Below are positions 16 through 25,920 of a stretch of DNA of 64,000 nucleotides, piece by piece. The translations under genes were made by a program, and so were the position numbers. Every line of letters starts with the position of its first letter. Position 1 is the first letter of the stretch. Source of the DNA: Telopea speciosissima (taxonomy: Eukaryota; Streptophyta; Magnoliopsida; Proteales; Proteaceae). The notes beneath the pieces were generated by a model that was given only the letters and a program-made list of their open reading frames with translations, searched no databases and had not been told where the DNA came from. The DNA is taken from assembly GCF_018873765.1 (NCBI RefSeq), contig NC_057920.1, forward strand, positions 35,055,267 to 35,119,266, given 5' to 3'.

Positions 16-121
16 ACGGTATACCGGTTGTTAAAACGGCATACCGGATCAGCATTTCTGGCAGTTTTTAGCCATTATTGCTTGAAACGGTATACCAGAT
101 GCTCAAACGGTATACCGGATC
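16..121. repeat. Cluster of four GGTATACC-core palindromes upstream of ORF3
   Basis: Four copies of acgg(t/c)atacc(g/a)gat occur at about 16-28, 36-50, 87-100 and 106-120. The best copies contain the perfect 10-bp palindrome CGGTATACCG. The same motif in degenerate form is repeated in the LTR at 2182-2443. The cluster ends about 50 bp before a TATA-like box. I infer a promoter-associated cis element. Confidence 0.75.
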
Positions 122-169
122 ATTTGAATTTCTGCCCATTTTTTAGCTGTTGCAGCACTTTTCAAAGTC

Positions 170-178
170 TATTTAAAG
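170..178 (+). promoter_or_regulatory. TATA-like box of an internal promoter for ORF3
   Basis: TATTTAAAG lies about 50 bp downstream of the palindrome cluster and 118 bp upstream of the ORF3 ATG at 288. It is followed by a pyrimidine-rich stretch typical of plant 5' leaders. The same order (palindromes, TATA, leader) is seen in the element's LTR. Transcription has not been shown; this is inference from layout. Confidence 0.5.
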
Positions 179-287
179 CCCTCTTTTGTCTCTTTCTGAT
201 TCATTGTTCACCTCATCTCTCTCCTATCCCATTTCATCTAAAACCTCTAAAATTCTTTTTCTCTCTCCTCCTCTCTCTCTTACTATA

Positions 288-1535
288 ATGAGTAGAAGAG
301 GCAAGGATGTTATGCCCGAAGGGCAACAACCATCCAAAAGGAGTAGAACCGGCAGTTCCTCGAGGCAACCTTATGCTCCTGGAGAAGATCGTCTCTTTCG
401 CTCTTTTGAATGCCGTGCAAATTGGCCTCTTTATCTTGCTCAAAAAATCGAAGAAGGCCGTGAAGTCAACATTTTCTCTTTCAATAGCATTCGGCTTGAG
501 AGCATGTTCAAGGATATCGGTTGAGACTCTCTTCTCAACATGAATGACCTCTGTTACCCTCAACTAGTCAAGTATTTCTACACAAATCTCTATTTCAGCG
601 GGGCGGATGAAACCTTGAAGCTTCACTCTTATGTGAAGAGTACTCATAAAGAGCTCTGCATTGCCACTTTTGCTAGTTATTTTGGTCTTTCTTGCGATGG
701 CCCTTGCATTTTTTGGACTCCTAAAAGCACCATCTTCAGGGACATCATCGACCATGAAGAAGTCTACTCTTCCATCTTGAAGGTTTATGATCCACAGGCA
801 GCAACAGTGGTAACTGAAAAACTTCACCTCGTTCCCCATGTTATTTCATACATTATTCAGCATAATTTTATTCCTCGGGGAGGCGATCGAAACAAATGTC
901 TCACTCCTCAAGCCTATCTCACTTACTGTGTTTACACCTCTACACCTCTTTGTCTTCCTTATTTCATCATGAGGTATATGGAATCTTATGCTCACCCACA
1001 AAAGCACACTAATCTACCCTATGGGAGACTTCTCACTCGTCTCTTTAAAGCTTTTGATATTGATCTCTCTCGAGAAGAAGAATCCTCCATGACTTTTCAA
1101 CCCATTACCCGTAATAGCTTTCATACTATTGCTATTCCCTCTCCTTTTGAGGTGTTTATTGAAGAAGACGAAGAATTGGATGAGAATATACCTCCTCCTC
1201 GTCAAGCTCAAGAAGGAATTCCAGCTTCCTTACATGAATGGGTGTCAAGCATCGATGACTACATGGACGAAGCAAATACACGCATAATGGAACTTGAATT
1301 TGGACAACAATGAATTCAAGATGAAGTAGATTCTCTCCGAAATGATGTGCGGACCGGTTTTAACTCACTCAATGTGCTCCAAGATAAAATTCTTAATGCT
1401 GTTCAAACTCTTGCTTTAAATCTTGGTCACGTCTCTCTAGACACACCGGGTGTCACTCCTCAAGGAGATCGTCCACCTTTCCCCGGTGCAACCAGTTCTA
1501 TTCCATCTCATCCTCCTTTTGATCCTATCTCTTAA
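288..1535 (+). pseudogene. Copia-1 ORF3, putative plant transposon protein family, two in-frame stops
   Basis: One reading frame from the ATG at 288 to the TAA at 1533-1535 is broken by TGA at 522-524 and TGA at 1311-1313. The product would have a basic, Ser-rich N-terminus, a helical domain (about residues 50-260) matching what I know as the putative plant transposon protein domain, an acidic linker and a C-terminal heptad-like segment. Its homologue in Copia-A (18398-19478, minus) has Trp where the first TGA stands, so that stop most simply arose from TGG. It lies between pol and the polypurine tract, the place where SIRE elements carry an extra ORF. No membrane segment is seen, so an envelope-like role is not supported. 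Function unknown. Confidence 0.8.
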
Positions 1536-1561
1536 GTTGTGATGCCTCTCTTTTTGATAAT

Positions 1562-1576
1562 GTCAAAGGGGGAGAA
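1562..1576 (+). other. Second purine-rich tract after ORF3
   Basis: A gtcaaagggggagaag stretch follows the ORF3 stop by about 27 bp. It resembles the true polypurine tract at 1736-1748 but is not followed by an LTR. It could be a secondary plus-strand primer site or a relic. Confidence 0.4.
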
Positions 1577-1735
1577 GTATTGGATTTGGATTAGTTATAA
1601 TTGAACGTCTACATGTTTTTTTTATGCTTATTATCTTATTGTAATAAAACATGTTTTGGTCATTGATGAATTAATGAATTGTTCTATTATTATCTCTTAT
1701 GCATTATTATCTTTTATGGATTATTTGTCATCATC

Positions 1736-1748
1736 AAAAAGGGGGAGA
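1736..1748 (+). other. Polypurine tract of Copia-1
   Basis: aaaaagggggaga lies directly before the 3' LTR start TGTTAG at 1750. It is the primer site for plus-strand DNA synthesis. The tract and flank match those of Copia-A (17864-17877, opposite strand). Confidence 0.9.
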
Positions 1749-2181
1749 TTGTTAGGGAAGTACACACGACACTATACTCTCCAAATATAAAAAGATGTTT
1801 TGATGATAACAAATAAGACCATTCTTGGACTAATGCTTATGTTCTAAGTGTTTTAGAGTCTAAAGCATAGCACCAAGTGAGGGGGAGTGTATACAAATAC
1901 AAGAGCATACACAAGAAGAGACATTTCAAGACTTGGAAGATAATCCTTGGAAGATTGAAGACTATATGTAAGCTTTGAAAAGCTTTGAAGAATTTGTATT
2001 AAATACTTTTGTTTTTTCCTTTTGAGTCATATTTGATGTAATGTACACACGAACGCATGCATCCATATAGAATGTCCTTAGGAGGTAATTAGACCCCTAA
2101 GACATATCCCCATTTGGGTTTGGAAACCCCAAACCTAAGTCTTAATGGAATTGGACCTATTTACAATAAATTTGCCCAGTC

Positions 2182-2443
2182 TAGCATACCGGTTCCTAAT
2201 CCAGCATACTAGATTAATGGGAAATCTCAGGAAAAAGGAAATAGTAGCTTGGTTAAGCAAGCTGGATCAGGATCCAGCATACCGGATCCTGAGAACCTAC
2301 AAAGTGCCCTGATCCGGCATTACCGGATTCCCATCTGGCATACCGGATCACTATTGGTCCTTTATGATTTGACCATTACTCCTGCGTTTTAAATGGAAGT
2401 TAGGTGATCCTACATACCGGATTCCCATCCAGCATACCAGATT
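2182..2443. repeat. Seven TACCGG-type motifs upstream of the LTR TATA box
   Basis: Degenerate copies of gcataccgga occur at about 2182, 2202, 2274, 2313, 2335, 2411 and 2429. The right half-site TACCGG is better kept than the left. They match the cluster before ORF3 (16-121) and end about 60 bp upstream of the TATA box. Confidence 0.75.
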
Positions 2444-2504
2444 ATTTATAGACTGTGGAATCCGATCCTTAATTGGATTCCTAATTAATTCTAGGCTCTT
2501 GGCC

Positions 2505-2512
2505 TATAAATA
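2505..2512 (+). promoter_or_regulatory. LTR TATA box
   Basis: TATAAATA in the middle of the LTR marks the likely U3 promoter for element transcription. Confidence 0.7.
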
Positions 2513-2753
2513 TCCTCTTGATTAATGCTCTAAACACCACAATTGATCATAATTAAGAGCTCTCAAGATTCAATTACTCCCAAGTCAGATTACATACTCA
2601 AGTTCAAGGAAGTTCAATCTCACCTTGCTCCCTTCATTCGCATTTGCATTCAAGCTTCATTGTTTGAAATGTAGCATTTGTTTTTCACTAAGGTCTGAGG
2701 TAATACTAAACCCCTTAGTGTTTATTTTCAACTTTACATTAGCTGGTTGGGTC

Positions 2754-2870
2754 CTCTTGTTCGAAATCAAGAGAAGGAGTCCTCTTGCTCATTATTTCAA
2801 GAGTAGTTCTTTGAGTCCTCTTGCTCGTTTCTCAAGAGTAGTTGGGGAGTCCTCTTGCTCTTACTCAAGA
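2754..2870. repeat. Series of four small hairpins in the transcribed part of the LTR
   Basis: CTCTTG is followed by its complement CAAGAG at 2754/2768, 2782/2798 and 2818/2833; a fourth starts at 2852 with CAAGA at 2866. Spacing is 28-36 bp. They lie downstream of the TATA box and hence in the RNA leader. Copia-A has an analogous series at 25210-25282. Confidence 0.6.
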
Positions 2871-3085
2871 TTTGAATAGTGAAATTCTCTCTAAGTTGAG
2901 AGGAGTAGACGTAGGCACGTGTTGGCCGAACCACTATAAATCTTTGTGTCTTTCTTCTTACTCCAATTATTGTCTAATTATTGCTTGTCTTTATATTTTG
3001 TGTTAATTTTCGCATTTATTTTTAATCTTCAAACCTTCACCTATTCGCCCCCCCTCTAGGTGAATTCACAGTATCGATCTCTACA

Positions 3086-3391
3086 AACCTACAAGTCCTA
3101 CTCCTTCAAAATAGGGATACTCCAAAGCTGCCCAACGAACAGAGAAAGCAACACCAATATCCATACCAACAACAGGCATAGTGGGAGTCACCTCACCAAA
3201 AGTTGAGGCACTCCTTGAGGAAGGTAGGAGACTCTTATAGTTAGGAATCTCAACCTCTGGATTCCTATGGGGGATTAAACCCTCATCGGGTACAACAGCT
3301 GGTTGGAAGAAGCCAACATGGCAGTCAGAGGAGGACAATTCACATTAAGAGCTCGACATGGAGAAGAAGAAGAAGATGAAGCAGAAGCCAT
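3086..3391 (-). pseudogene. Possible first exon of an antisense ORF in Tat-F
   Basis: On the minus strand an ATG at 3391 opens a Ser-rich reading frame, and an overlapping frame stays open from 3338 to the Copia-1 junction. A GTAAGC donor-like site lies about 60 bp upstream of the ATG, as GTAAGT does before the antisense ORFs of Tat-A and Tat-C. I recognise no domain. The frame change and truncation argue for a relic. Confidence 0.3.
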
Positions 3392-3906
3392 TCATAGTGA
3401 GGAAAGAAACAAAGAAAATTGTAGAAACTGAAAGGAAGATAGAAAAGCTTACTTGCTAAAGACATGCGGAGAAAAAGGGTCGACACAGGAAAAATTGAAC
3501 TCAATCGAAAGAAGCCCTAGCACGCAAAACACAGGCACAACAAATATCACCATAGAAATGCTGGAAAGATAAAGAAGAAGAAAGCAATGAGGAAGAAAAC
3601 TTAAAAAAGGAAGGAAATGCAGAGAAGGTATAAGATGGAGCAATAAATGCTCCCTAAAAATCACGCCCACAAAATGAATAGGAGTATATCCAGAAACCTG
3701 GATTTTGAAAAAGAGAATCCTTTTCGTCTCCTTGCCCGGAGCAACGCGCCCTATTGACGTGTCATTCACCCGCTGGCCTGACATGACATGAAACCCCTCA
3801 TTCGGCCGCTCCAACGGCGATTGAAGCAACAGGCACCATAACCCCATGACAACTGGAACCCGTACTAAGCCCTAATCATGGTGAACACGAAAGTGCCTAA
3901 TCGTTC

Positions 3907-4150
3907 GGTCGAGAGTGTGAAAGACAAGACCACTTGGTCGAGAAGTATAGAAGCCAAAACCACTTGATCGAGAGTGGAGAACCATTTGGTTGAGAGTATG
4001 AAAGACAAGACCACTCAATCGAGAGTATAGATATCAAAACCACTTGATCGAGAGTGGAGAACCATTCGGTTGAGAGTATGAAAGACAGGACCACTCAGTC
4101 GAGAGTATAGAAGTGAAAACCACTCGATTGAGAGTGGAGAATCATTCGAT
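3907..4150. repeat. 80-bp tandem repeat, three copies with internal subrepeats
   Basis: Units start at about 3911, 3992 and 4072 (spacing 81 and 80 bp). Each unit consists of three shorter parts of about 22-30 bp, all beginning gag(a)agt and ending in a ccact(t/c)-type or ccattt-type box. It is therefore a small higher-order array next to the 3' LTR of Tat-F. Confidence 0.85.
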
Positions 4151-4243
4151 CGAAAACCTAGAGAGTAACACAAGATAAAGCCGTTCAGCGTAGTGTTACT
4201 TACTCAAATAGATCCTGAAGGATCTGCTGGAGTGGGGGGCTTA

Positions 4244-4726: not shown

Positions 4727-5263
4727 CCAGCCATACTATGATAGAATTTATGGCATTTTATAGTTTTCTTATGGGAAAAGTTTACTACACGACCATTCCA
4801 TTATACCTTCCTCACATAATAAATAGTGGGACTCATACTGACATTTCACTCTCCTATTTTGACTATATGGGTCCCATATGGATGATACCATTTTCCAGCC
4901 TCTCATTGATTATAGTACAAAGATTTTCCTTCTTACATTGCCCTTGTTGGAAATCCACTCCCCTTATTCGAGTTTATACTCACTTAAAAAAAAAAAAAAA
5001 ACTCACTTCTATAAGATAAATGATTATCAACACTTGTTTTAAGATGAAACTTGACCAGCATTGAGATGGGTTGTGCATGTGTTCTCTATTGCATCTCACA
5101 TTGACCCACATTCTTTGCCATTTGACAAAATACTTAGATGACGAAATATCACTAACCTAAGTGACCCCTCCATCGTACCTCTTGTGTCTTATCCAATTTC
5201 CTACACTGTTTCTAATTATGGGTACATAATTCATAAGTTTTAGGCCAACTTGATCAAAGGATC
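4727..5263. other. Spacer without recognisable gene
   Basis: AT-rich sequence with a run of A at 4986-5000. Short ORFs here show no known domain. Nothing further can be supported. Confidence 0.5.
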
Positions 5264-6468: not shown

Positions 6469-6480
6469 GGTGGAGCTAGA

Positions 6481-6493
6481 GGCTCTGATACCA
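6481..6493 (-). other. Primer-binding-site copy outside the left LTR
   Basis: TGGTATCAGAGCC (minus strand) also abuts the outer side of the 6494 LTR, within a 25-bp block identical to 7639-7663. A normal single element would have host DNA here. It suggests a former tandem LTR-internal-LTR-internal arrangement. Confidence 0.65.
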
Positions 6494-6885
6494 TATTAGA
6501 GCTTATAAATTATGGAACATGGAAGGAGAACAATATTAAACAGAACTTCATTATTATTGCATACCTATTGATTTCAAAGAAGGGGCCTAATATATATAGG
6601 CCTAAGAGAAACTACTTACATAATATAAGAGATACTACTTACCTATAATAGTAGGTGTAAATATGGGTGAAGGAATCCACATGTTGGAAACTCTATCACC
6701 TATAAGGATTACAATATGATATTATACTATTCATGGAAGATTGAGAGAGATACATTGAAGATTGTATAAGATTATGATACTGATTCCTAATATAACTGAA
6801 CTACTTACCTAGAGTGCTGTTGAGCTAAGGATGGAAGATCCTTCTCTTATTCTAATACTAATATATTCTTAATATATCTCTAAAA
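6494..6885 (-). repeat. LTR copy 1 of the TA..TA element
   Basis: Starts TATTAGAG and ends CTCTAAAA. It is nearly identical to 7664-8054 apart from scattered substitutions. On the minus strand it is the 3' LTR, preceded by a purine-rich GCGAGGGAG tract at about 6887-6895. Confidence 0.8.
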
Positions 6886-7650
6886 CTCCCTCGCAAGATG
6901 AGCGTGGATAGAAGAGAAACGCTCAGCTTGATTATTGAATTGAAAGGCCTACACAATTTGCAACATGCATGTGACTGAAATGGTGAGCGTCTTGGATGGC
7001 GAGGTAGTGGGTGCTCATAGGAGCTTGGTGTGGTATGATTCATCGACCGAGATTGGGGTGCCCACGCGCTGTGGAGTTGCTGCTGGTGCACAACTAAGAA
7101 GAGATTGGGGTGCCCATGCGCTGTAGAGCTGTTGTTGGTGCACAAATGGGACTAGAATTGAGAAGAAAATGAGCTGCTGCTTTGGAGCTTTGTGTGTTCT
7201 TTTTTTGTGTTGTAGTCTTAAGCCCTCTACCTGAGGCACGACCCTAAAAAAGGGACCTCAACTCAAGGCATGACTTAAGGATGACCGAAAATAGATAATC
7301 AAAGAAAGTAAAATAATAAGGCAGAGATAAGAGAAAAGACAAAAGAAAGGTGGAGAATTTTGGATGCTTAGTATAACTGGGCCGATGGTGGATGGGTTGT
7401 TTTTATTTATTTATTTTTTTGTGATGAAAGGGAATTAGGCCATGATGGATGAGGTGGTGATGTAATTGCGGTTGTAGACGTGAGGTTTCAAGAGGGAAGG
7501 GAGTAAAAATGAAAATTGGAAGAGGGAAGAATGGTGGATCGAGTGCTCATTGGAGCCTTGAAGGAATAATGGTGGATTGAGTGCTCATTGGAGATGAGAA
7601 GATTGAAGGAAAAAAAAAAAGAAATGAATCCCTTGCTCGGTGGAGCTAGA
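6886..7650 (-). other. Internal region of the TA..TA element
   Basis: No gag or pol domain is visible. A repeated segment of about 60 bp (gattggggtgccca, near 7051 and 7108) gives short repetitive ORFs on the minus strand that do not look like real proteins. A second internal repeat (tggattgagtgctcattgga) occurs near 7530 and 7570. Confidence 0.5.
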
Positions 7651-7663
7651 GGCTCTGATACCA
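7651..7663 (-). other. Primer binding site, initiator-Met tRNA type
   Basis: TGGTATCAGAGCC on the minus strand is directly inside the 7664 LTR, with no spacer. It is the usual Copia minus-strand primer site. Confidence 0.8.
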
Positions 7664-8054
7664 TATTAGAGCTTATAAATTATGGAACATGGAAGGAGAA
7701 CAATATTAAACAGAACTTCATTATTATTGCATATCTATTGATTACAAAGAAGGGGCCTAATATATATGGGCCTTAGAGAAACTATTTACCTAATATAAGA
7801 GATACTACTTACCCATAATAGTAGGTGTAAATATGGGTGAAGGAATCCACATGTTGGAAACTTAATCACTATAAGGATTACAATATGATATTATACTATT
7901 CATGAAAGATTGAAAGAGATACACTGAAGATTGCATAAGATTATGATACTGATTCCTAATATAACTTAATTACTTATCCAAAGTGCTGTTGAGATAAGGA
8001 TGGAAGATCCTTCTCTTATTCTAATACTAATATATTCCTAATATATCTCTAATA
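7664..8054 (-). repeat. LTR copy 2 of the TA..TA element
   Basis: Starts TATTAGAG and ends CTCTAATA, giving perfect 8-bp terminal inverted repeats. On the minus strand it is the 5' LTR. Confidence 0.8.
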
Positions 8055-14700: not shown

Positions 14701-14907
14701 TTTATCAATAAAGGTCAGTTCCCAATTGTTTGAATTCTGATAGTACTCAGTTGTTAGAATTCCAAAATTAAATTCCAAAGTTGTTAGTTGTTTGAACTCC
14801 AAATGTGTCATTTGTGGAAAATCAATGATTAATCAATAAAGTCGAAGGCAAGCATTAGAGTTCTCTACGGATATTATTGTTTTGTTAATAATGTGCCAGC
14901 AACTAAC
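14701..14907. other. Spacer after Tat-A pol
   Basis: Contains short internal repeats of the word gttgtttgaa(t/c)tcc near 14725, 14755 and 14785. No gene. Confidence 0.5.
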
Positions 14908-15340
14908 ATAATGGTGAGTTGCACTATAGGGGAGTTTCCCCAAAGAAAATGATGGTCATCCGACCATAATGGTGAGTTGCACCATAGGGGCGTTTCTCCA
15001 AAGAAAATGATGGTCACCCGACCATAATGGTGAGTTGCACCATAGGGGTGTTTCCCCAAAGAAAATGATGGTCACCCGACCATAATGGTGAGTTGCACCA
15101 TAGGGGCATTTCCCCAAAGAAAATGATGGTCACCCGACTATAATGGTGAGTTGCATCAAAGGGGTGTTTCCCCAAAAAAAAGGATGGTCACTCAACCATA
15201 ATGATGAGTTGCACCATAGGGGCATTTCCCCAAAGAGAATGATGGTCACCTGACCATAATGGTAATTAGCACCATAGAGGCGTTTTCCCCAAAGCAAGGA
15301 TGATGGTCAACCAGACATAACGACGAGTTACACTACAAGG
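14908..15340. repeat. 58-bp tandem repeat array in Tat-A
   Basis: Units begin at 14908, 14966, 15024, 15082, 15140, 15198 and 15256 (exactly 58 bp apart), with an eighth partial, more diverged copy at 15317. Each unit holds ATGGTC...GACCAT, an inverted repeat, and the word gttgcaccatagggg. Such arrays between pol and the 3' LTR are known in plant Tat elements. Confidence 0.95.
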
Positions 15341-16446
15341 AGGATTCCATAAACGAAAGGAAGCTAATCGTCTGATTACAGAAGAAAACACTCTACAAGA
15401 ATATAAGGCTGCGCATACAGAAAGGTACAAATATACCAAGAAGATTGCTCGGATAACAAAATTCTTTTATTAAGTATTTAGTACACTGGAACAAGTATGC
15501 AAGTACAAGCTTACAAAGCAATTACATTTCTCAAAAACAAGTACACAGTAAGGTTTACAAGTGTCCCGATGAAGTTATGCTCGGGTTCGAGACCAGTTCA
15601 CCCGAGGAGAAAATGTGGCAAACTAATTGAATAGCCACACCGCCAGGAGAAAGCCGTCTCCGTGCTCCCGAGCAGAAGAAGGCTGATGAAACTTGAGCAC
15701 CGTGGATTACGAAGTGTGAGACAGGGGTAGCATACACAACAACTTCAAAATGATCAAGAGGACCAGCTGCTCCAGAGTAACCCTGAGAATCAAGAGGAGA
15801 CACCTTTGCCAAATGGGATTCACCATCAGCACGCTAAAGCACCAAAATAGCCCTATTTCTACTCCTCTCAAGCCACCAGAAGTAAGGAGCCAAAAGAGGA
15901 CTAGGGAGAATAACGGCCTTTGGGTCCTCTAGCACACTGACAGATCCACACCACTGCTCACCAAATACATTAACAGTGAAGGTCGTCGGCAAGCAGTCTC
16001 CTGAAGACTCTCCACCTCTCTGATGCAACCTTCCTTCTCCAAAGAGTTGGCAAAAGGAAGACACACAGAGAGGTACCATCACGGCCCGTCAACCCAAAGG
16101 ACACTACGTGTCAATTGAGGATCGAAGCCGTGATGAGAAATGTCGATTGAAGATTAAAGCCGAAAGTAATGCTTCTAAGAAGATAAACCTTAAAAAACAT
16201 GCAACCTATGCACCTTAGAAAGCAACAGAAACCAAAACACCATAAGAAGCGCAGAGTCTCTACGGAACAATAGCGAAAAGACAACATTGAAGAACCCATC
16301 TCTCCTTGAGGAGCAAAAGTATAGAAGATGCTAGCCCTATTTATAGGGCAAAATGACGGTTCCAAGGTAAAAAAGAATATTAAAGGGACAACTGCCCCAC
16401 TTACTGGGAAGTTATACCCAAATCCACGTGTTTCAATCCCAATGGA
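15341..16446. other. Tat-A region between the tandem array and the Copia-A insertion
   Basis: Minus-strand ORFs (15555-15812, 15834-16082, 16111-16446) have no recognisable domain. The position fits the 3' part or untranslated end of the antisense transcription unit. The stretch ends at the CCAAC target-site copy 16447-16451. Confidence 0.45.
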
Positions 16447-16451
16447 CCAAC

Positions 16452-17863
16452 TGTTGGGTAACCTAGAGGGGGGTGAATAGGTTACCACTAGTGGATTTTG
16501 CCTCTTTTTCGATTGGTTGCACACTTATATTAAATATAAAAAGCAGAAATAAATGAGGCACAAGATTTATAGTGGTTCGGCTAACTTAGCCTACATCCAC
16601 TCCTCTCAACCTTGAGAGAATTCCACTAGTATTTCCCTTTCAATATAATAGGTGGGGAAATGACACCTTTACAACTCTTTTTAATAGGATAAGAGGATCC
16701 TTACAATCTTAGTTCCAGGACAAGAGTATCCTTTCAATCTCTTAAGGATGAGAGGGTCCTTGTACTAATCTAAGTACAGTCTAGATTAATACAACAATGC
16801 TTTATCAAATCAAAAGCATAAACAAGTAAATACAATAGAAGTTTGGTATAAATACCTATCAAAGAGTAGTGACACTTTTACCCTTTGAGTGATGGTGCTC
16901 AATGATATGAATGAGAGTGATGCACCTTGAGTCTCCTAGATGACTCTCCTTGATGGCATGAGTTGGAGAGAGTGGAGAGTTAAGAGCTTGGTAATATCTC
17001 TTTGAAGAGCTTGAATTGAATAATTTAGCTCAATGACAAATTCTCACTTTTGTACTTTTTCAAATGTACTATGCACTTTTTCTATCAAAAAGATGTGTTT
17101 TGTTCCTTGTTTGGATGTGTTTTATAAAGCCAAAAGTTGGAGTTTGTTTGTTCTCCAACGGATATAAAACTGTCATATTTTTAGACTGTCGGTCGACCTA
17201 TAAAGTTGTCGGTCGACCATCAAAAAACTAGCCGTTGAAAACTAGCCGTTAAGCCCAAGTTTGGGGCTGTAGGTCGATTGTCTGTCAACCTATGGATCGA
17301 CCTACAAGTGTCGATCGACCGATAGATCTGTCGGTTGCAACCGACAGGCTACTGGAAACAGGTCTGTATTTTTATATTACTCGAGGTCGACCGATGAGTC
17401 CGAGGTCGACCGACGTACGTTATCCTATTTTTTTGATTGTCTGTCAAGGGGATTTTTGGTCCAGCTTGCTTGGAGACTTCATAGGTTTTTGTCTAACACT
17501 TTAATGGCCATGTTTCTTGAGTCTAGGGCATGGGAATGAGTTCCTCCTAGGGTCTCTTACATGTGAATGCAATGTGTGTGCAATGTGATATGCACATGTA
17601 GTGAAATGTGTTCTATTGCACTTGAATCTTCTTGGAGAGTCTTTGTCTTGTTAATTCTTGGCTTCCTTTAGAAGATGTTCCTCAATCTTCAAATTTCTTC
17701 TTTTCCTTAACTCTTCATTGTGAGCTCCGTTGATCAAGTCTTTCCTGGATGCTTGATGCTTCCAACGTCGACTATGAAGCTTGCTTAAAGATTGGAATAT
17801 TAGTATTAATCTTAATGTTTGTTATCATCAAAATTAGTTTATGGAGGAATGTGTTTTCCAACA
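16452..17863 (-). repeat. 3' LTR of Copia-A
   Basis: 1412 bp. Differs from the 5' LTR by about ten scattered substitutions, a 12-bp duplication of actagccgttga-type sequence near 17230, and many changes in the palindrome cluster 17186-17416. Confidence 0.95.
17186..17416. repeat. GGTCGACC-core palindrome cluster in the 3' LTR of Copia-A
   Basis: At least eight copies of tcggtcgacc(g/t) or mutated forms, plus TGTCGGTTGCAACCGACA, a variant with the half-sites two bases further apart. Core CGGTCGACCG differs from the Copia-1 core CGGTATACCG only in the two central bases. Confidence 0.85.
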
Positions 17864-17877
17864 ATCTCCCCCTTTTT
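17864..17877 (-). other. Polypurine tract of Copia-A
   Basis: AAAAAGGGGGAGAT on the minus strand immediately precedes the 3' LTR. It is identical to that of Copia-1. Confidence 0.9.
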
Positions 17878-18397
17878 GATGATGACAAACATGTGATTCA
17901 AAATATGCATTACTCATGTATGTATGCAATTCAAGATAAATATATGCATTATTCATGTGGGCATGTAACTCAAGATGAATATGCATTATCATACATCATA
18001 TGATTATTTGAATCATAATTCAAGGTAAAGATAAATATGCATTATCACATAATATGTAGATAAATATGCATTATCACATAATATGAATATTTGAATCATA
18101 ATAACTTCTCCCCCTTTTGTCAACACAAAAAGGAGGTGTAGAGCATGAACAAGCAAAAACAATCTTAGGGTGGCTCCCCCTAAGAAAATGACTTCCTGCA
18201 TGGTTAGAAGAACAGAGAGCAAATAATATGAAGCCCAATAAAGTGTTAATTTTAAAAGCATCACATGCTTCAAAATAGAAGTTCCATGTTTTAAAAGTAT
18301 GCCATAACAGTACAGATCAAGAGTGCTAATATGATGTCAACTATCTCTACTGTGGAGGAGGAGGAAAGAAATGCAGATTGAGACGCTGTAAGATCAC
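17878..18397. other. Spacer between ORF3 and polypurine tract of Copia-A
   Basis: AT-rich stretch with repeated words (atatgcattat, atcataat), for example near 17943, 17980, 18035 and 18065. A second purine-rich tract is present on the minus strand near 18108 (acaaaagggggagaag), matching the one after Copia-1 ORF3. No gene. Confidence 0.55.
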
Positions 18398-19478
18398 TTA
18401 GTTCTCCTGTTGGATGCGAAGAATCTCTTCTTGATCTTTGTGGAGAGAGGTGAAGTGATCATCAAAGCCCTTCAGGCGGGTGTCAAGTTGTTGGCGAAAA
18501 CTTGAAAATTCTTCTCTGGTGACATAGTCCCCTGAGGGTTCACCAACATAGTCTTCATCCTCACTGTCGTCCTCTTCTTGTGACTCTGCTTCGTCACCTG
18601 TGACATGTTGGGTAGCTCGCTTCCTTCGGGCTTGGTGTGAGGGAGGAGCCGCAACAAATCCCAGCTTCATCTTCTTGATGGTGGATGAGTCGATGTCAAT
18701 CATCTTGGGGTCAATGGATTCCCCAGAGAGATCCACTTCATGGAACTTAAGGATGGCAGTTATGAGTCTGCCATATGGAAGGTTTCCCCTATAATGAGGT
18801 ACTGCACAGTATTCCATGGTCTTCATAATCACATATGGAAGATTGATAGGATTGGCAGTGACAAGACACCAAGTAATGTAGGCTTGAAAGGGATTGACTT
18901 GGTCTCTATGGCCTCCTTTGGGCAAGATGTTGTAGCTGACAATGAAGCTGATCATCCTGGGTAGTTCATGAAGTTTCATAGCTTTAACAGTTGGTTCAAA
19001 CCCAACATAGTCTTTCATGATGGCACCATAAATTTCATCAACATTCATAAAGGTTTTGGCATCCCCTTTGGGAGGAAGATAGCTCATATCTCCTAATGTG
19101 GGAATTCCCATGATCTCTCCTAGATCTTCATAAGTGAACATGATGGGAACACCCTTTACTAGGGATGTGATGGCAAGCCTATCATCCACTATTTGGGTTC
19201 TCAGATTACAGTAAAAGTGTCTGGCAAGGTCAGGATAGCAGGGATCAACATAAACTAAGGTATTTTCCCAACCCAAATATTTGAAATATTCTTCAATGTC
19301 ATAGTCAAGAAATTGAGAAACTCTTACGTTCTTTCCTTGTCAACCTTTCTCTTCTCAAATCTTCCCGAGAGAATGGAGGCTTTTCCGAGATGAAGAGAGA
19401 CTTGTCATATGCTGCAGAGCTCTCTCCAACTTTGGCTTTCTTCTTTGGTTGCTTGCCCTTGCTTTGCTTTGGAGCCAT
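18398..19478 (-). pseudogene. Copia-A ORF3, putative plant transposon protein family, one frameshift
   Basis: ATG at 19478 begins a Lys-rich N-terminus (MAPKQSKGKQPKKKAK). A frameshift near 19320-19330 separates this from the main domain, which reads open from about 19330 to the stop at 18398. The domain aligns with Copia-1 ORF3 (for example DPCYPDLARHFYCNL against NDLCYPQLVKYFYTNL, and LPYGRLITAILKFHEVDLS against LPYGRLLTRLFKAFDIDLS). An acidic linker and a C-terminal coiled-coil-like helix follow. Basic tail, helical domain, acidic linker and coiled coil suggest a nucleic-acid or chromatin-associated factor, but no function is known. Confidence 0.8.
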
Positions 19479-19690
19479 TTGAAACCTAGGGCTTTAGAGA
19501 ATAGAGAGAAATAGAGATTTTTGGGTTGGAAGTGGGTAGATTGTGTAGGAAGAGTGATTTGGGGCTTGGATTTGGTGAAATCTCAAGGGATTTTGCAGGG
19601 TTTTGCCTTGGAGTTCAGAGAAAAAGGGTTTTGGAGAGGAGGGGTCTCAAACAAAAGAGGAGGGAAATGAAAAAAATCCTCTCGGTTCTT

Positions 19691-19749
19691 GTTTAAAAAT
19701 GAAATTTTCCGTGTCGGTCGACCGACAGACTCGTGTAGGTCGACCGACA
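19691..19749 (-). promoter_or_regulatory. Palindrome pair and TATA-like box before Copia-A ORF3
   Basis: The perfect 16-bp palindrome TGTCGGTCGACCGACA (19712-19727) and TGTAGGTCGACCGACA (19734-19749) are followed on the minus strand by CATTTTTAAAC (19701-19691) and a CT-rich leader of about 210 bp before the ATG at 19478. The same motif is clustered in the LTR promoter. Inferred internal promoter. Confidence 0.55.
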
Positions 19750-19928
19750 GGTCAAAAACAGGGATTAATGGGATTTTAGCCCAGAATTCTCTAACAACCT
19801 GATTTTTGGGCTTTTTGAGGATTTCACTTTACTCAAAAGGGTTGCAAATCCCGAGTTCTCTCCTTAAATAGCAGAATCTCTCTTCACTTAATGGCTTGGT
19901 GAGTATGTCTGCAAGTTGTTTTTCAGTT

Positions 19929-22865
19929 TCAATGTATTTTAGAACAATTTCCCCTTTTTGAACTGTCTCTAAGAAAGTGATGCCTAATATCAATATGTTT
20001 GGCTCTTGAATGGAGAATGGGATTTTTGCTTAAATTGATTGCACTTGTATTGTCGCAATTAATTGGAGATGAACTAAAATGTATCCCATAGTCCATGAGA
20101 GTTTGCCTCATCCAAAGGACTTGGGCACAACACCTACCGGCTGCAATGTACTCGGCTTGGTAGTGGAAAGAGCAACGAGTTTTGTTTCTTGCTAAACCAT
20201 GAAACCAAGCAAGATCCTAAGAAGTGACATGTGCCACTTGTACTCTTGCGATCAAGATGGCACCCTGCAAAGTCGACATCCGAAAAGCTTATTAAATCAA
20301 AATTTTGGTTCATTGGGTACCATAATCCTACATTTGTAGTACCTTTAAGATATTTAAAGATCCTTTTAACGGCACTAAAGTGGGATTGCATTGGGTTGGC
20401 TTGGAATCTAGCACAAGCACACACGCTAAACATGATGTCTGGCCTACTAGCGGTGAGATATAGAAGGCTGCCAATCATGCCTCTATAGCGTGTAGGGTCT
20501 ATGGGAGTACCTTCCTCATCTTTAGATAGCTTTAGAGAGGTGCTCATGGGGGTGCTAGATGACTTTTGTCCATCAAAATCAAATTTCTTGAGAAGTTCTT
20601 TAGTGTATTTAGTTTGACATATAAAGATTCCATTTTTGGTTTGCTTAATTTGAAGTCCTAAGAAAAAATTAAGTTCACCCATCAAACTCATTTCAAATTC
20701 ATCACTCATGCATTTGCTAAATTCAACACAAAGATTTTCATTGGTGAATCCAAATATAATATCATCAACATATATTTGCACAATAATAGAGTCTTTTCCT
20801 TTATGTTTCACAAACAAGGTTGTATCAACCTTACCCATTTGAAATCCACTTTGGATTAGGAATTCATTCAATCTCTCATACCAAGCTCTAGGAGCTTGTT
20901 TGAGTCCATAGAGAGCTTTGTTAAGTTTGAAGACGTGATCCGGATATTGTGTATCCTCAAATCCGGGAGGTTGTGCAACATATACTTCCTCCATGATAAA
21001 GCCATTTAAAAAAGCACTTTTGACATCCATTTGACATAGCTTAAAATTTTTATGACATGCAAAAGCAAGTAGCATTCTAATAGATTCCAGTCTTGCTACC
21101 GGTGCATAGGTTTCATCAAAATCTATCCCTTCTTGTTGATTATATCCTTTGGCAACTAATCTAGCCTTGTTTCTAATGATTGATCCATCTTCATCAAGTT
21201 TGTTTCTAAACACCCATTGGCTCCTATAATAGAATGATTCTTGGGTTTTGGGACAAGCTCCCAAACATTATTTCTTTCAAATTGATGGAGCTCTTCTTGC
21301 ATAGCTACTATCCAATCACTATCTTCCAATGCTTCTTTTATGTTTTTAGGTTCAATTTTGGATATGAAAGCAACATTGTTGCAAATGTCTTGAGTTTTAG
21401 ATCTAGTTTGGATTCCTTTGTCTAAGTCTCCAATGACATGATCCAAGGGATGGTCTTTCCAAGGTCTAACCTCTTTGGGTAGATCCTTTGGTTGGTCTTC
21501 GGGTTCTCTTAGAGAGAAATTTTCTATGTTCTCCCTAATCTCAACAAGTGTATCATCATCATCAACCAATGGCTTGTTTCTATCTTTAGGAAGAGATTCA
21601 TCAAATTTTATATTCATTGATTCTTCAATAATCAAGCTTTTCTTATTGAAGACTCTATAGGCTCGACTATTTGAAGAGTATCCAAGGAAAATGCCATCAT
21701 CGGCTTTAGCATCAAATTTTTCTAAGTTATCCTTAGTATTCAATATATAGCATATACACCCAAACACTTTAAAGTAATCAACTTTAGGTAGTTTATTATG
21801 ATAGAGTTCATAGGGTGTTTTGAGTAATATAGGTCTAATTAATACACGATTTAACACATAGCAAGCCGTATTGACCGCTTCGGCCCAAAAATATTTTGGA
21901 AGAGAGTATTCATTTATCATTGTTCTAGCGGTCTCTTGGAGTGATCTATTCTTTCTTTCAACCACCCCATTGGATTGAGGTGTTCTAGGAGCGGAGAAGT
22001 TATGGGTTATGCCTTGTTTACTGCAATAACTCCCAAATTGATTGAGATTGTCAAATTCTCTTCCATGATCACTTCTAATGGTTGTTATGAGATATCCCTT
22101 TTGGTTTTGTATTCTCTTACATAGAGATGCAAATTCATCAAAGGCTTCATCTTTATGTTTTAAAAATAGAGTCCATGTGAAGCGAGAGAAATCATCAACT
22201 ATTACAAAGGTGTATCTTGAACCGCCTAGGCTAGGTGTAGTAATAGGTCCAAACAAGTCCAAGTGTAGTAGTTCTAAGGGTCTAGTGGTAGACACTTCAT
22301 TTTTTGATTTATGAGATACCTTGGTTTGTTTTCCTCTTTGACAAGCATCACATACATGGTCTTTTCCAAATTTGAGTTTGGGTAAGTTTCTAACTAAATT
22401 CTTAGATGCAATGGTCTTAATCACTTTTACATTAACATGTCCTAGTTTTCTATGCCATAGGTAGGGATCAACATCATTTGTCACAAGACATGTATTACTA
22501 GAATTTGCTTCATCCAATAAGCAGATATAGATATTATTTTTCCTAATTCCCTTCAAGATAGTCTTATCATTTGAATTTTTTACTAAGCAATGAGAGGTTT
22601 TGAAAATGACACTATATCCTATATTACATAGTTGACTCACACTAAGCAAATTATACTTTAAATTGTCAACTAGGCATACATTGGATATGATTGTACCTCC
22701 AATGGTGATTTCACCGATGCCAATGATTTTTCCTTTGCTATTGTCCCCAAATGTCACCATTCCTCCATTGTACTTGTTTAGCTTGGTGAATAGATTGGGG
22801 TTGGCCGTCATATGCTTGGAGCATCCACTATCAATATACCATTCAATTGCTTCATTGCTCTTCAA
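19929..22865 (-). pseudogene. Copia-A pol: protease, integrase, reverse transcriptase, RNase H
   Basis: Order is protease-integrase-RT-RNase H, as in Copia. Protease active site WYIDSGCSKHM is at the start. Integrase has the HHCC domain (WHRKLGHVN...CDACQRGK), catalytic segments DLFGP, SDHGREF and PQSNGVVERKNR. RT shows [11 protein letters not shown] and an intact YVDD (about 20773). RNase H has SDVDFAGC and DNTSAI. A frameshift near 21230 joins the two long frames and another near 20140 separates the end. Several stops lie in the gag-pol linker between 22866 and 22925. Confidence 0.9.
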
Positions 22866-22976
22866 GCATACCTATAAAAGCAATCAATTATATGTTGGTC
22901 CCTATAATCTCATGGGTCCATTGAGGTTAGGATCGATCATACCCTTAGGTATCCAAGCTCTTCTAGAATTTTGACT

Positions 22977-24908
22977 TTATATTGTAGGTGTGATAGATGT
23001 AGGTTTTCGATGTCCATATGATCTTTGGGTTCTTCTTGGCCCTTGAAATTCATAGTGTCTATATGGAACATAGTAATTTTGTGATGTGTAAGACTTATTG
23101 TTGATGTAGGCCCTTTGGTGATCATAGGGCCTAGTGTATGTGTTTGGTCTATAGTGATTTTGAGGTCTTTGGGGTGCATATGGCATATATGAAGCATTTT
23201 GCCTATATGGTTGAAATGGCTTAGGCTTGGGATATTGTCTTTATGGCCGTTGGGGCACAAATTCTCTTTGAGGTTTGTTGGTCCTCTTTTGAGAAGTATA
23301 GTAGAATGCATGATGCTTCCTTTTTGTATCCGGTTCTTTATATATCACCTTACCATCAATATAAGCACCGATGCAAGTTTCATGCCCGGGTAAATGACAT
23401 TTTTCACATACAATGGGATGTGAGGTTTGGCCTTGGTTTGATTTTCTCCATCTTGGAGTTCTCATCTTTCCCTTTCCTTTGGCTTGATGTGGTCTTTTAC
23501 CATCATAGCCTAGACCTTCTTTATTTTGAGGTCTCTTTTGTGGATTTCTTAATAATGTATCTAAGGTCTTTTGACCCTTAGTAAAGGTGTGCAATGTGGA
23601 GGTTAGATTCTTATTTTCTTCTTCTAGGTTGTGTGCATGTGAAGTCAACTCATCAATTTTGTGTAGAAGATTGGCTACTTCTTTTTCTAAGGCCTTTTTA
23701 GAAGCTTCCTCTTGGAGACTTACATTATAAAGTTCTTCAAAGGCCTCTTGAAGTTCTTCATATTCTAAATCATCATTGCAAATTGACAATGAGCTATGAT
23801 AGGGAGAGTTTACCTCGTCATCATCATTGTTGTGAGCCATTAGTGCCAAGTTGACGGTCTCTTCATCGGATTCATTATTTTCTTCTTCACTATCACTTGA
23901 ATCCCATGATATCTCGGCGGTGCAAGCCTTTTTCTTTCTGCTTTCCTTTCCTTTTAGCTTGGGGCACTCGGTTTTGAAGTGTCCGGGCTTTCTACATTCA
24001 TAACACACAATGTCCTTGTTAGTATTGAAAGGTTTTTCCTTTGTGTATGTTTTACCTTTGTTTTCTTTTGATGGTTGTCCTTTGTAGAATCTTCCTCCTC
24101 TCTTTCTTAGGAATTTTTGGAACTTCCTTGTGATTAGAGAGATTTCTTTCTCTATATCCTCTTCATCGCTTTCTTCTTCTTCGGATTCGCAAGAGGTCTT
24201 GAGTGCGATGGACTTTCTCCTTGGTTCTTTTACTTCTATGACTTTATCATCTTCAAGGAGTTCAACTTCATGGGTTTGTAGAGTACCCATCAATTCATCC
24301 ATGTGTAGAACCTCTAGATCTTTTGCTTGTTTGATGGCGGTCACCATTGGTCTCCACTTGGAGGGTAGTGATCTCAAGATCTTCTTTACATTCTCCGCTT
24401 TGGTGTATTCCTTTCCTAAGCTTTTCAACTTGTTAACAATATTAGTAAACCTAGTAAACATGTTAGAAATACTTTCATCATCAAGCATTTTAAACAATTC
24501 ATATTCATGAACAAGTTTGTCAATCTTGAGTTGTTTAACTTGTGATGTTCCTTCATAGGTAACCACAAGAGTATCAAACATCTCCTTAGCTGTGTTACAC
24601 ATACTAGTTCTATTGAATTCTTTTTCACTAAGAGCACATTGTAGGAATGCAATAGCTTTGTAGTTTTGTTGTATGTGTGTTTTATCCGATGGTGTCCATT
24701 CGGATTTCTCCTTAGGTACAATTCTTCCTCCAACTTCTTTTGTGATTTGGAAGGGACCTTCCTCAATCACAGTCCATACATCAATATCATGAGCACACAC
24801 ATAATTTTTGAACCTACACTTCCAGTAGGCAAATCCTTCACCATCAAAGTATGGTGGCCTAGAAGTGTTGAGCCCCTCAATTTGGTGTGTAGATGATGAT
24901 GATGCCAT
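22977..24908 (-). pseudogene. Copia-A gag
   Basis: ATG at 24908 starts a 555-residue frame to TAA 23241-23243, and the same frame continues to 22977, so that TAA probably replaces a Gln codon. UBN2-type gag domain (FDGEGFAYWKCRFKNYV, LTRF-like FTRFTNIVNKLKSLG) is followed by a CCHC zinc knuckle CYECRKPGHFKTEC, an acidic region, a predicted coiled coil (about residues 370-450) and a second CEKCHLPGH knuckle. The extra-long gag with coiled coil is typical of SIRE elements. The tail after 23241 is rich in Tyr, Pro and Arg. Confidence 0.9.
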
Positions 24909-24960
24909 GGATCGTTTTTAGCACAATATAAAGACAATATGGTCTTAGTTTTGAGCTCCT

Positions 24961-24972
24961 TCTCTGATACCA
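24961..24972 (-). other. Primer binding site of Copia-A
   Basis: TGGTATCAGAGA on the minus strand starts two bases inside the 5' LTR; it matches the 3' end of initiator-Met tRNA. Confidence 0.9.
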
Positions 24973-25209
24973 ATTGTTGGGTAACCTAGAGGGGGGTGAA
25001 TAGGTTACCACTAGTGGATTTTGCCTCTTTTTCGATTGGTTGCACACTTATATTAAATATAAAAAGCAAAAGTAAATGAGGCACAAGATTTATAGTGGTT
25101 CGGCTAACTTAGCCTACATCCACTCCTCTCAACCTTGAGAGAATTCCACTAGTATTTCCCTTTCAATACAATAGGTGGGGAAATGACACATTTACAACTC
25201 TTTTTAACA

Positions 25210-25282
25210 GGATAAGAGGATCCTTACAATCTTAGTTCCAGGACAAGAGTATCCTTTCAATCTCTTAAGGATGAGAGGGTCC
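25210..25282. repeat. Three spaced 14-bp stem units in the Copia-A LTR
   Basis: GGATAAGAGGATCC (25210), GGACAAGAGTATCC (25241) and GGATGAGAGGGTCC (25269) share the pattern GGA(T/C)(A/G)AGAG(G/T)(A/G)TCC with 28-31 bp spacing. They occupy the same place relative to the shared block as the hairpin series of Copia-1. Confidence 0.7.
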
Positions 25283-25709
25283 TTGTACTAATCTAAGTAC
25301 AGTCTAGATTAATACAACAATGCTTTATCAAATCAAAAGCATAAACAAGTAAATACAATAGAAGTTTGGTATAAATAACTATCAAAGAGTAGTGACACTT
25401 TTACCCTTTGAGTGATGGTGCTCAATGATATGAATGAGAGTGATGCACCTTGAGTCTCCTAGATGACTCTCCTTGATGGCATGAGTTGGAGAGAGTGGAG
25501 AGTTAAGAGCTTGGTAATATCTCTTTGAAGAGCTTGAATTGAATAATTTAGCTCAATGACAAATTCTCACTTTTGTACTTTCTCAAATGTACTATGCACT
25601 TTTTCTATCAAAAAGATGTGTTTTGTTCCTTGTTTGGATGTGTTTTATAAAGCCAAAAGTTGGAGTTTGTTTGTTCTCCAACGGATATAAAACTGTCATA
25701 TTTTTAGAC

Positions 25710-25920
25710 TATCGGTCGACCTATAAAGTTGTCGGTCGACCATAAAAAAACTAGCCGTTAAGCCCAAGTTTGGGGCTGTAGGTCGATTGTCGGTCGACCT
25801 ATGGATCGACCTACAAGTGTCGGTCGACCGATGAGATCTGTCGGTTGCAACCGGCAGGCTCGGAAACAGTCTGTATTTTTTATATTCCAGGTGACAGTAA
25901 GATCGTAGGTCGACCGACAG
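25710..25920. repeat. GGTCGACC-core palindrome cluster in the 5' LTR of Copia-A
   Basis: Copies include tatcggtcgacc, gtcggtcgacc (twice), tgtcggtcgaccgat and taggtcgaccgaca. The set differs markedly from the 3' LTR cluster although the rest of the LTRs is nearly the same. Confidence 0.85.

What the first reader, a model, noticed from the sequence alone, without database searches (positions are those of the whole stretch)
16..25920. CGGT-NN-ACCG palindromes shared by the LTR promoter and an internal ORF3 promoter in two different Copia elements
Seen: Copia-1 has CGGTATACCG-type sites in two places, before ORF3 (16-121) and before the LTR TATA box (2182-2443). Copia-A has CGGTCGACCG-type sites in the same two places (19712-19749, and 25710-25920 / 17186-17416). 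The 10-bp cores are perfect palindromes that differ only in the two central bases. In both LTRs, and before Copia-1 ORF3, the last site is about 50-60 bp from the TATA box (closer before Copia-A ORF3). Outside these regulatory areas the sites were not noticed. Inference: a self-encoded or host dimeric factor binds a diverging palindrome and co-controls genomic RNA and ORF3; ORF3 itself is a candidate binder.
Basis: partly seen in the sequence, partly recalled or inferred. Interest (0 to 1): 0.8.

Follow-up and report, generated by a model that had tools for sequence, protein, structure and literature searches.

The report
Sirevirus palindrome boxes at two promoters
Two plant retrotransposons carry repeated short palindromes before both their main promoter and the start of an extra gene, a pattern published in 2010; here it recurs at nearly fixed distances from the TATA box in several families of one genome, and what binds it is still unknown.

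Summary
CGGTNNACCG occurs 4 times exactly in the window (0.08 expected) and 21 times within one mismatch (5.84 expected). In the complete Copia-A element every site within one mismatch lies in U3 or before ORF3; gag-pol (5,030 nt) has none. The Copia-1 LTR has no site within one mismatch; it has seven oriented relatives of (A/G)GCATACCGGAT.

This is the Sirevirus 'RM box' of Bousios et al. 2010 (PMC2829016), who reported CGG-CCG palindromes upstream of the LTR TATA box and of the ENV-like gene, listed CGGTCGACCG for a Vitis element, and suggested an internal ENV promoter. The core finding is not new.

Added here, from one genome: four ORF3-bearing groups with separate U3 clusters (A, B, C1, E) carry boxes in both places. 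The last LTR box starts 71-75 bp before TATA in nearly all loci measured. A TATA-like box follows the last pre-ORF3 box at 25-28 bp (A, E, most B) or 58-62 bp (C1). ORF3 is under purifying selection and shows no strong membrane segment. Whether ORF3 or a host factor binds is untested.

The parts
1..3075 (+). 3' part of Copia-1 (SIRE-type; its 5' part lies outside the window): pre-ORF3 region, ORF3, PPT and 3' LTR
   Evidence: PPT/LTR junction AAAGGGGGAGATTGTTAG at about 1738-1755; LTR end read
17..117 (+). four pre-ORF3 boxes of Copia-1: CGGTATACCG 17-26, CGGCATACCG 37-46, CGGTATACCA 88-97, CGGTATACCG 108-117
170..176 (+). TATTTAA TATA-like box, 62 bp from the start of the last pre-ORF3 box
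288..1313 (+). Copia-1 ORF3, frame interrupted in this copy; open piece 540-1313 matches PF20167 (E 3.9e-11, 43.6 bits, just under the curated cut-off of 45)
2182..2439 (+). seven oriented U3 boxes of Copia-1, starts at 2182, 2202, 2275, 2316, 2336, 2410, 2430; related to (A/G)GCATACCGGAT
2505..2510 (+). LTR TATA box of Copia-1 (CTATAAAT), 75 bp from the start of the last box
16452..26370 (-). Copia-A, complete SIRE-type element between CCAAC target-site repeats (16447-16451 and 26371-26375)
   Evidence: LTR repeats D2, D3, D7, D8; ends read
25713..25916 (-). 5' LTR U3 boxes of Copia-A: 25713, 25733, 25791, 25821 (exact), 25907
25644..25649 (-). 5' LTR TATA box of Copia-A, 73 bp from the start of the last box
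   Evidence: read; same distance as in the 3' LTR
17190..17412 (-). 3' LTR U3 boxes of Copia-A: 17190, 17210, 17312, 17384, 17403
17121..17126 (-). 3' LTR TATA box of Copia-A
   Evidence: distance 73
19715..19746 (-). two pre-ORF3 boxes of Copia-A, 22 bp apart (19715-19724 exact, 19737-19746 one mismatch)
19692..19699 (-). TTTTTAAA TATA-like box, 25 bp from the start of the last pre-ORF3 box (26 bp in 28 of the other 29 loci of the group examined)
18398..19478 (-). Copia-A ORF3 (env-like position), frame interrupted in this copy; open piece 18398-19276 has PF20167 (E 5.3e-17)
20134..24908 (-). Copia-A gag (CCHC knuckle), integrase, RVT_2; no box within 1 mismatch (region tested 19901-24930)

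Best explanation
These are Sirevirus RM boxes: arrays of 12-16 bp palindromic DNA sites that work as cis-regulatory elements of two promoters in one retrotransposon, the LTR promoter (genomic RNA) and an internal promoter for the extra gene ORF3. A dimeric nuclear factor most likely binds them side by side along the helix, at a set distance from the TATA box. Each group has its own version of the site, largely alike at its two promoters. Shown by sequence: the boxes, their confinement to the two regions, their near-constant spacing to TATA and TATA-like boxes, and their recurrence across groups. Inferred: binding by a dimer, activation, and transcription from the internal promoter. Open: whether the factor is a host protein (somewhat more likely) or ORF3 itself.
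For: Enrichment and regional restriction. Genome counts: CGGTATACCG 1,297 against 26 for the composition- and CpG-matched CGCTATAGCG; CGGTCGACCG 1,055 against 41 for CGCTCGAGCG. Group-blind U3 test on 32 junctions: 25 of 32 show an excess met by at most 3 of 300 shuffles; the 7 misses are all 3 loci of groups F and G, 3 of 11 of B and 1 of 13 of D. Last LTR box to TATA: A 73-74 bp in 28 of 30 loci (others: none found, 40), B 72-74 in 3 of 3, E 71 in 1 of 1, C1 75 in 4 of 4, ORF3-less D 72 or 75 in 5 of 5, although A, B, C1, D and E form separate U3 clusters (no alignment of 200 bp or more; D is not wholly independent of C1). Pre-ORF3 TATA-like box: A 28 of 30 at +26, one at +25, one at +48 whose nearer box is decayed; B 6 of 8 at +26 to +28, L058 a weaker TTCTTAA at +27, L095 at +49; E +27; C1 5 of 5 at +58 to +62. 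Spacings cluster near whole helical turns (R 0.75 at 10.5 bp; for distinct spacings 6 of 10,000 random sets as strong). Same anatomy in Bousios 2010.
Against: No transcript start, binding or reporter data. The same arrays fold strongly as RNA (z -6.2, -3.1, -5.2), so a role in RNA or siRNA production is not excluded. Pre-ORF3 distance to the TATA-like box differs between groups (about 26 against 60 bp). Copia-1 LTR sites are not full palindromes, and its pre-ORF3 and LTR left flanks differ. Three of 11 B loci show no pre-ORF3 site within 2 mismatches. Counted over the whole 2.6 kb upstream, ORF3-bearing loci are not clearly above chance (3-4 sites against 1.8-3.5); the pre-ORF3 claim rests on position and spacing. 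The phasing test treats related spacings as independent.
Confidence: 0.75

Rival explanations
1. Self-encoded factor: ORF3 is a nuclear dimeric protein that binds its own group's palindromes at both promoters and activates or un-silences the element, as VANC proteins do for VANDAL elements.
For: ORF3 natural copies show purifying selection (median dN/dS 0.305 over 22 pairs from 10 uninterrupted copies), no hydropathy peak of membrane strength (largest 19-residue mean 1.32 over the SIRE copies examined) and a basic N-terminal patch; the C-terminus looks heptad-like by eye and is a helix in the low-confidence model. The four ORF3-bearing groups have boxes in both places. ORF3-less D has C1-type boxes, and one D copy has a U3 73% like that of Copia-1 near the TATA box, so a C1 ORF3 could act in trans. 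Groups F and G have neither ORF3 nor a box excess. One non-SIRE PF20167 group has a GGTCGAC array (L048: 5 against 0.083).
Against: No DNA-binding fold found. Six of eight non-SIRE PF20167 loci lack the GGTCGAC core. Bousios 2010 reports boxes in four ENV-less elements and six ENV elements without boxes. MASiVEdb says ENV-like genes share transmembrane and coiled-coil domains. Flank-only matching fails for B and C1. The proteins are acidic overall (pI 5.2-6.1).
Confidence: 0.25
2. Host transcription factor(s), for example stress or hormone regulators, bind the boxes; elements have tuned their sites to host factors.
For: Boxes persist in ORF3-less group D. Bousios 2010 matched boxes to stress-related sites in the PLACE database. 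Copia-A boxes contain ACCGAC and TGTCGG, which I recall as DREB and ARF core sites (recalled, no call).
Against: Those cores are absent from the commonest B, C1 and E site forms, so no single recalled host factor explains all groups; Bousios could not name a common factor either.
Confidence: 0.5
3. The arrays act mainly as RNA or as siRNA hotspots: repeated palindromes fold into hairpins in the genomic RNA and feed host silencing.
For: Strong RNA folding: z -6.23 (Copia-A U3), -3.05 (Copia-1 U3), -5.23 (Copia-1 pre-ORF3). Maize Sirevirus LTR palindromes are small-RNA hotspots (passages of PMC5311732 and PMC10760457).
Against: Near-constant distance to the TATA box and near-helical spacing point to DNA. 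Most single sites outside the Copia-1 LTR have self-complementary centres, which hairpins do not need. Silencing is a cost and does not explain conservation.
Confidence: 0.15
4. Copying by descent: pre-ORF3 boxes are relics of an LTR piece moved inward, with no present function; ORF3 is made from a spliced LTR transcript.
For: A pyrimidine-rich tract lies before ORF3, and a non-SIRE PF20167 locus (L051) has a splice-acceptor-like TTTGGTTGCAG just before its ATG.
Against: No repeat of 60 nt or more joins pre-ORF3 and U3 in the window (shorter similarity was not tested beyond the boxes). Boxes and their TATA-like spacing recur in A, B and E although blastn does not align their pre-ORF3 regions.
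Confidence: 0.1

Closest known systems
Sirevirus RM boxes (Bousios et al. 2010, PMC2829016; abstract, passages, section 9 and first part of the Discussion seen)
   Same: CGG-CCG palindromes in many copies in U3 upstream of the LTR TATA box and upstream of the ENV-like gene; ENV-less elements have LTR boxes only; the Vitis element has the very string CGGTCGACCG (10 LTR copies, 2 before ENV); an internal ENV promoter suggested. Their averages (TATA 37 bp after a CpG island that ends about 45 bp past a box) already imply a rough box-to-TATA distance.
   Different: Here several groups in one genome are compared; the box-to-TATA distance is measured per locus and is nearly constant (71-75 bp); TATA-like boxes are located before ORF3; Copia-1 LTR and pre-ORF3 versions are shown to differ in the left half.
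Maize Sirevirus LTR palindromes as small-RNA hotspots (Bousios et al. 2016, not read; known here through passages of PMC5311732 and PMC10760457)
   Same: Palindrome clusters in the cis-regulatory part of Sirevirus LTRs.
   Different: That work concerns host silencing; no small-RNA data here.
VANDAL / VANC anti-silencing system (PMC5735166, passages)
   Same: Short motifs arrayed in one orientation in non-coding parts of a plant transposon; motif differs between families; a self-encoded protein binds it.
   Different: VANC carries DUF1985 and DUF287; ORF3 matches PF20167 and not those; the word palindrome does not occur in that paper; VANDALs are, from recall, DNA transposons; no binding shown for ORF3.
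Retand antisense ORFs with TRP28 (PMC11963269, passages) and Grande gene23 (PMC7264820, passages)
   Same: Extra ORF between pol and 3' LTR, thought to be nuclear and possibly regulatory; gene23 has its own promoter.
   Different: Those ORFs are antisense and in other elements (Retand is Gypsy); ORF3 here is sense, PF20167, in Copia/SIRE.

Membership tests
Sirevirus (Ty1/copia SIRE lineage) | PPT GGGGGAGA with conserved PPT/3' LTR junction | tested here: met
   AAAGGGGGAGATTGTTRG in both elements; 325 + 308 exact matches in the genome, reversed control 0
Sirevirus (Ty1/copia SIRE lineage) | more than one PPT copy upstream of the 3' LTR | tested here: met
   Copia-1 GGGGGAGA at 1568 and 1741; Copia-A two copies in the linker
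Sirevirus (Ty1/copia SIRE lineage) | Copia order of pol: integrase before RVT_2, gag with CCHC | tested here: met
   Copia-A; Copia-1 pol lies outside the window
Sirevirus (Ty1/copia SIRE lineage) | LTR end with polyC-rich integrase signal and adjoining PBS | tested here: met
   read (CCCCCCTCTAGG in both; ATTGGTATCAGAG after the Copia-A 5' LTR; Copia-1 5' LTR not in the window); that this PBS fits Met-tRNA is recalled
Sirevirus (Ty1/copia SIRE lineage) | extra sense ORF between pol and 3' LTR (present in many, not all) | tested here: met
   ORF3 with PF20167 in both
Sirevirus RM box (Bousios 2010) | palindrome with CGG-CCG core, many copies, in upper half of LTR before TATA | tested here: met
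   Copia-A; for the Copia-1 LTR only in a half-kept form
Sirevirus RM box (Bousios 2010) | extra copies just upstream of the ENV-like gene, none in ENV-less elements | tested here: met
   pre-ORF3 sites in A 30 of 30, B 8 of 11, C1 5 of 5, E 1 of 1 loci; within 1 mismatch over the whole upstream stretch: 1 of 5 D, 0 of 2 F/G, 4 of 5 A/B/E loci, so in single decayed copies the contrast is modest
Sirevirus RM box (Bousios 2010) | boxes border predicted CpG islands | not tested
   no CpG-island prediction was run
Envelope protein | transmembrane segment | tested here: not met
   largest 19-residue Kyte-Doolittle mean 1.32 over the SIRE frames examined (L018, L019, L022, L043 partial, L055, L058), under the usual 1.6 (threshold recalled). 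Simple hydropathy only; MASiVEdb states that ENV-like genes have transmembrane domains
VANC anti-silencing proteins | DUF1985 / DUF287 domains | tested here: not met
   no such hit at E <= 1 for 10 PF20167 proteins
VANC anti-silencing proteins | binds the arrayed motif and removes DNA methylation | not testable with these tools
   needs DAP-seq/EMSA and bisulfite data

The most novel reading that the evidence does not exclude
The so-called envelope gene of Sireviruses is not an envelope but a nuclear, dimeric, self-encoded DNA-binding regulator. It recognises its own lineage's palindrome at both the LTR and its own promoter, forming a VANC-like feedback or anti-silencing circuit, and ORF3-less relatives live off it in trans.
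Probability: 0.2. Interest if true: 0.8.

Novelty: new member of a known kind. Interest (0 to 1): 0.4.

Why it matters
The function of the Sirevirus 'envelope' gene and of the RM boxes was left open in the 2010 paper. A near-constant box-to-TATA distance across separate U3 clusters, located TATA-like boxes before ORF3, and an ORF3 under selection without an evident membrane segment make both questions directly testable: one binding assay and one 5'-end map would settle whether Sireviruses carry their own transcription factor.

Tried and rejected
Relatives outside this genome: ORF3 found no confirmed relative in viral contigs and none at E <= 0.001 in the protein database, so the comparison rests on one plant genome. 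Fold of ORF3: AlphaFold2 with only the two window pieces gave pLDDT 33; not used, no fold search made. PDB profile search gave only chance-level matches (best E 0.34). The tool's reversed-pattern control for CGGTATACCG (979) has no CpG and was set aside as unfair; CpG-matched controls replaced it. At first L066 and L062 seemed to lack boxes; looser scans showed them. 'All PF20167 elements have boxes' was rejected: 8 of the 10 loci show no SIRE junction in the stretch fetched, and 6 of those 8 lack the GGTCGAC core. Flank-only matching is reported although it weakens the co-divergence claim (the true pairing ranks 2nd of 24). Of the first 50 CGGTATACCG places listed on contig 1 only 9 fall near the SIRE landmarks I held (0.11 expected); the landmark lists are partial, so most genome-wide sites are not assigned to an element.

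Full report
Observation. In the 64 kb window CGGTNNACCG occurs exactly four times (17, 108, 19715, 25821) where 0.08 is expected, and 21 times within one mismatch where 5.84 is expected; none of 100 shuffles reaches either count. The window holds the 3' part of one SIRE-type element on the plus strand (Copia-1, 1-3075) and one complete SIRE-type element on the minus strand (Copia-A, 16452-26370; LTR repeats, CCAAC on both sides read). A regional test puts all Copia-A sites within one mismatch in U3 (5 in each LTR) or before ORF3 (2); gag-pol, ORF3 and the rest of the LTRs have none. Copia-1 has 4 before ORF3.

Correction. The Copia-1 LTR has no site within one mismatch of CGGTNNACCG. It has seven sites in one orientation related to (A/G)GCATACCGGAT: two fit it fully, four keep ATACCGG (0.04 expected, 0 of 200 shuffles), one has an extra base. 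In four relatives with both regions (L052, L055, and the pairs L096/L097 and L098/L099) the same contrast recurs: near AAACGGTATACCGGAT before ORF3, near ATCC(G/A)GCATACCGGAT in the LTR. So the sites are wider than 10 bp, differ between elements in flanks as well as centre, and in the Copia-1 group differ between the two regions.

What is already known. Bousios et al. 2010 (PMC2829016; abstract and outline, passages, section 9, first part of the Discussion) described this: a repeated palindromic motif with a CGG-CCG core in the upper half of Sirevirus LTRs before the TATA box, with extra copies upstream of the ENV-like gene (77 of 79 linker copies), absent from the linker of ENV-less elements. 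Their Table 3 lists CGGTCGACCG for a Vitis element with 10 LTR and 2 pre-ENV copies. They proposed regulation and an internal ENV promoter, which they could not conclusively identify, and found no common binding factor. MASiVEdb (PMC3414828, passages) says that the gene's function is unproven and that it may not be a true envelope gene, but also that such genes share transmembrane and coiled-coil domains. My searches for later work on the binder or function gave no title that addresses it; apart from the papers named here I did not open the listed ones, and the library holds only open-licence PMC papers.

Wider sample. The genome (823 Mb, 1,287 contigs) has 325 + 308 exact SIRE PPT/LTR junctions. 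I fetched U3 from 32 of the first 100 listed junctions (31 on contig 1, one on contig 2), chosen not to lie beside the Copia-A ORF3 hits; 31 of the 32 are of the TTGG kind, so the Copia-1 kind (TTAG) is under-sampled. Twelve came with 2.6 kb upstream, twenty as U3 only. Clustering gave seven U3 groups: D 13, B 11, C1 2 (plus window Copia-1, L052, L055), A 1 (plus the window copy), E 2, G 2, F 1. ORF3 was found by tblastn in the long loci of A, B, C1 and E, and not in the long loci of D (5), F (1) and G (1). In a group-blind U3 test 25 of 32 loci show an excess of CGGTNNACCG-like sites reached by at most 3 of 300 shuffles; misses are L074 (D), L058, L062 and L078 (B), L060 (F), L061 and L086 (G). 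Upstream of the junction the same loose count does not separate the groups well: D 1-2 sites (1.6-1.9 expected), A, B and E loci 3-4 (1.8-3.5 expected); within one mismatch, 1 of 5 D, 0 of 2 F/G and 4 of 5 A/B/E loci have a site.

Genome counts. CGGTATACCG 1,297 against 26 for CGCTATAGCG; CGGTCGACCG 1,055 against 41 for CGCTCGAGCG. The controls have the same composition and CpG number.

Spacing. From the start of the last LTR box to the start of TATA: A 73-74 bp in 28 of 30 loci (L018 gave none, L045 40), B 72-74 in 3 of 3, E 71 in 1 of 1, C1 75 in 4 of 4, D 72 or 75 in 5 of 5. The groups share no U3 alignment of 200 bp or more; A against B, and A against C1, share only the first 50 or so bases of the LTR, a stretch after TATA or a 22-bp piece. 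D is related to C1 near TATA (L059, 73% over 248 bp). Before ORF3, a TTTTTAA box lies at +26 in 28 of 30 A loci, +25 in the window copy and +48 in L039, whose nearer box is decayed; in B at +26 to +28 in 6 of the 8 loci with a called box, with a weaker TTCTTAA at +27 in L058 and +49 in L095; in E at +27. TATWTAA lies at +58 to +62 in 5 of 5 C1 loci. Box-to-box spacings recur at 20-21, 30, 41, 51, 60-61, 72-74, 82 and 85 bp. Over one locus for each of five groups (36 spacings, TATA distance included) the phase concentration is R 0.75 at 10.5 bp; for the 18 distinct values 6 of 10,000 random sets are as strong. Related spacings are not independent, so I take this as suggestive.

Match between the two regions. 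Matrices from LTR sites were used to score pre-ORF3 sites: over 16 bp 82 of 86 sites fit their own group best (A 53 of 55, B 11 of 12, E 1 of 2, C1 17 of 17). Site calling used the group's own centre, which favours this. With flanks alone A holds (53 of 55), B fits C1 (9 of 12) and C1 fits E (17 of 17); the true pairing ranks 2nd of 24. Centre (AT against CG) and the A flank co-vary; the rest does not.

ORF3. Both window copies are interrupted; open pieces match PF20167 'Transposase_32', of unknown function. Ten uninterrupted A copies give 22 pairs of equal length with median dN/dS 0.305 (range 0.20-1.16), so the gene has been under purifying selection. Natural frames of 367-413 aa have no hydropathy peak of membrane strength (largest 1.32) and a basic N-terminal patch, more like a nuclear protein than an envelope; the C-terminus looks heptad-like by eye. 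No fold could be obtained: model pLDDT 33, PDB profile best E 0.34. The domain also occurs in other elements: of the 10 loci, eight show no SIRE junction; two of these (L046, L048, one group) carry GGTCGAC repeats (2 and 5, against about 0.1) and six carry none.

Mechanism. The best reading is a shared cis-regulatory module for two promoters, read as DNA by a dimeric factor on one face of the helix. A host factor and ORF3 are both possible; persistence in ORF3-less D argues for a host factor or for trans-acting ORF3 from C1. RNA folding is strong, so small-RNA effects, known for maize Sirevirus palindromes (passages of PMC5311732 and PMC10760457), may run alongside. VANC of VANDAL elements (passages of PMC5735166) is the nearest working model for a self-encoded reader of arrayed motifs; ORF3 is not a VANC by domain.

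Verdict. Real, non-random and biologically sensible, but published in 2010 in essence. The added value is the near-constant promoter geometry across groups in one genome, the located TATA-like boxes before ORF3, and evidence that ORF3 is a selected, probably soluble protein. The ORF3-binder idea stays open.

Noticed in passing
L048:2354-3081 and L046 (G000 C2:35875685-35878885, C5:63208400-63211640): An element type without a SIRE junction in the fetched stretch that also encodes PF20167 carries repeated (G/A)GTCGACT(G/T) sites, often in 22-bp pairs, shortly before GTATAAACC (GGTCGAC 5 against 0.083 in L048, 0 of 300 shuffles; 2 against 0.12 in L046, 4 of 300 shuffles). Element type unidentified.
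   Followed up: partly
L051 (G000 C9:12510549-12513749): Another PF20167 group (L050, L051) has no such boxes; L051 shows a splice-acceptor-like TTTGGTTGCAG just before the ORF's ATG, which suggests a different way of making the protein.
   Followed up: no
L056, L059, L063, L064, L067: A common ORF3-less SIRE group (13 of 32 junctions in a sample that favoured TTGG junctions) with C1-type boxes in U3; L059 shares its TATA region with Copia-1 at 73%, as if derived from a C1-like element that lost ORF3.
   Followed up: partly
window 14849-15370: Tandem array of a 58-bp unit (family D1).
   Followed up: no
window 3944-4183 and 6469-8052: 80-bp tandem unit (three copies) and a duplicated block of about 415 bp, 1,170 bp apart.
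   Followed up: no
window 31693-35043 and 43308-46273: Remains of a Gypsy-type element (gag, RT RNase H, integrase H2C2) and of a further Copia-type pol (weak RVT_2, GAG-pre-integrase); near the latter there is only one isolated one-mismatch site (43228).
   Followed up: no
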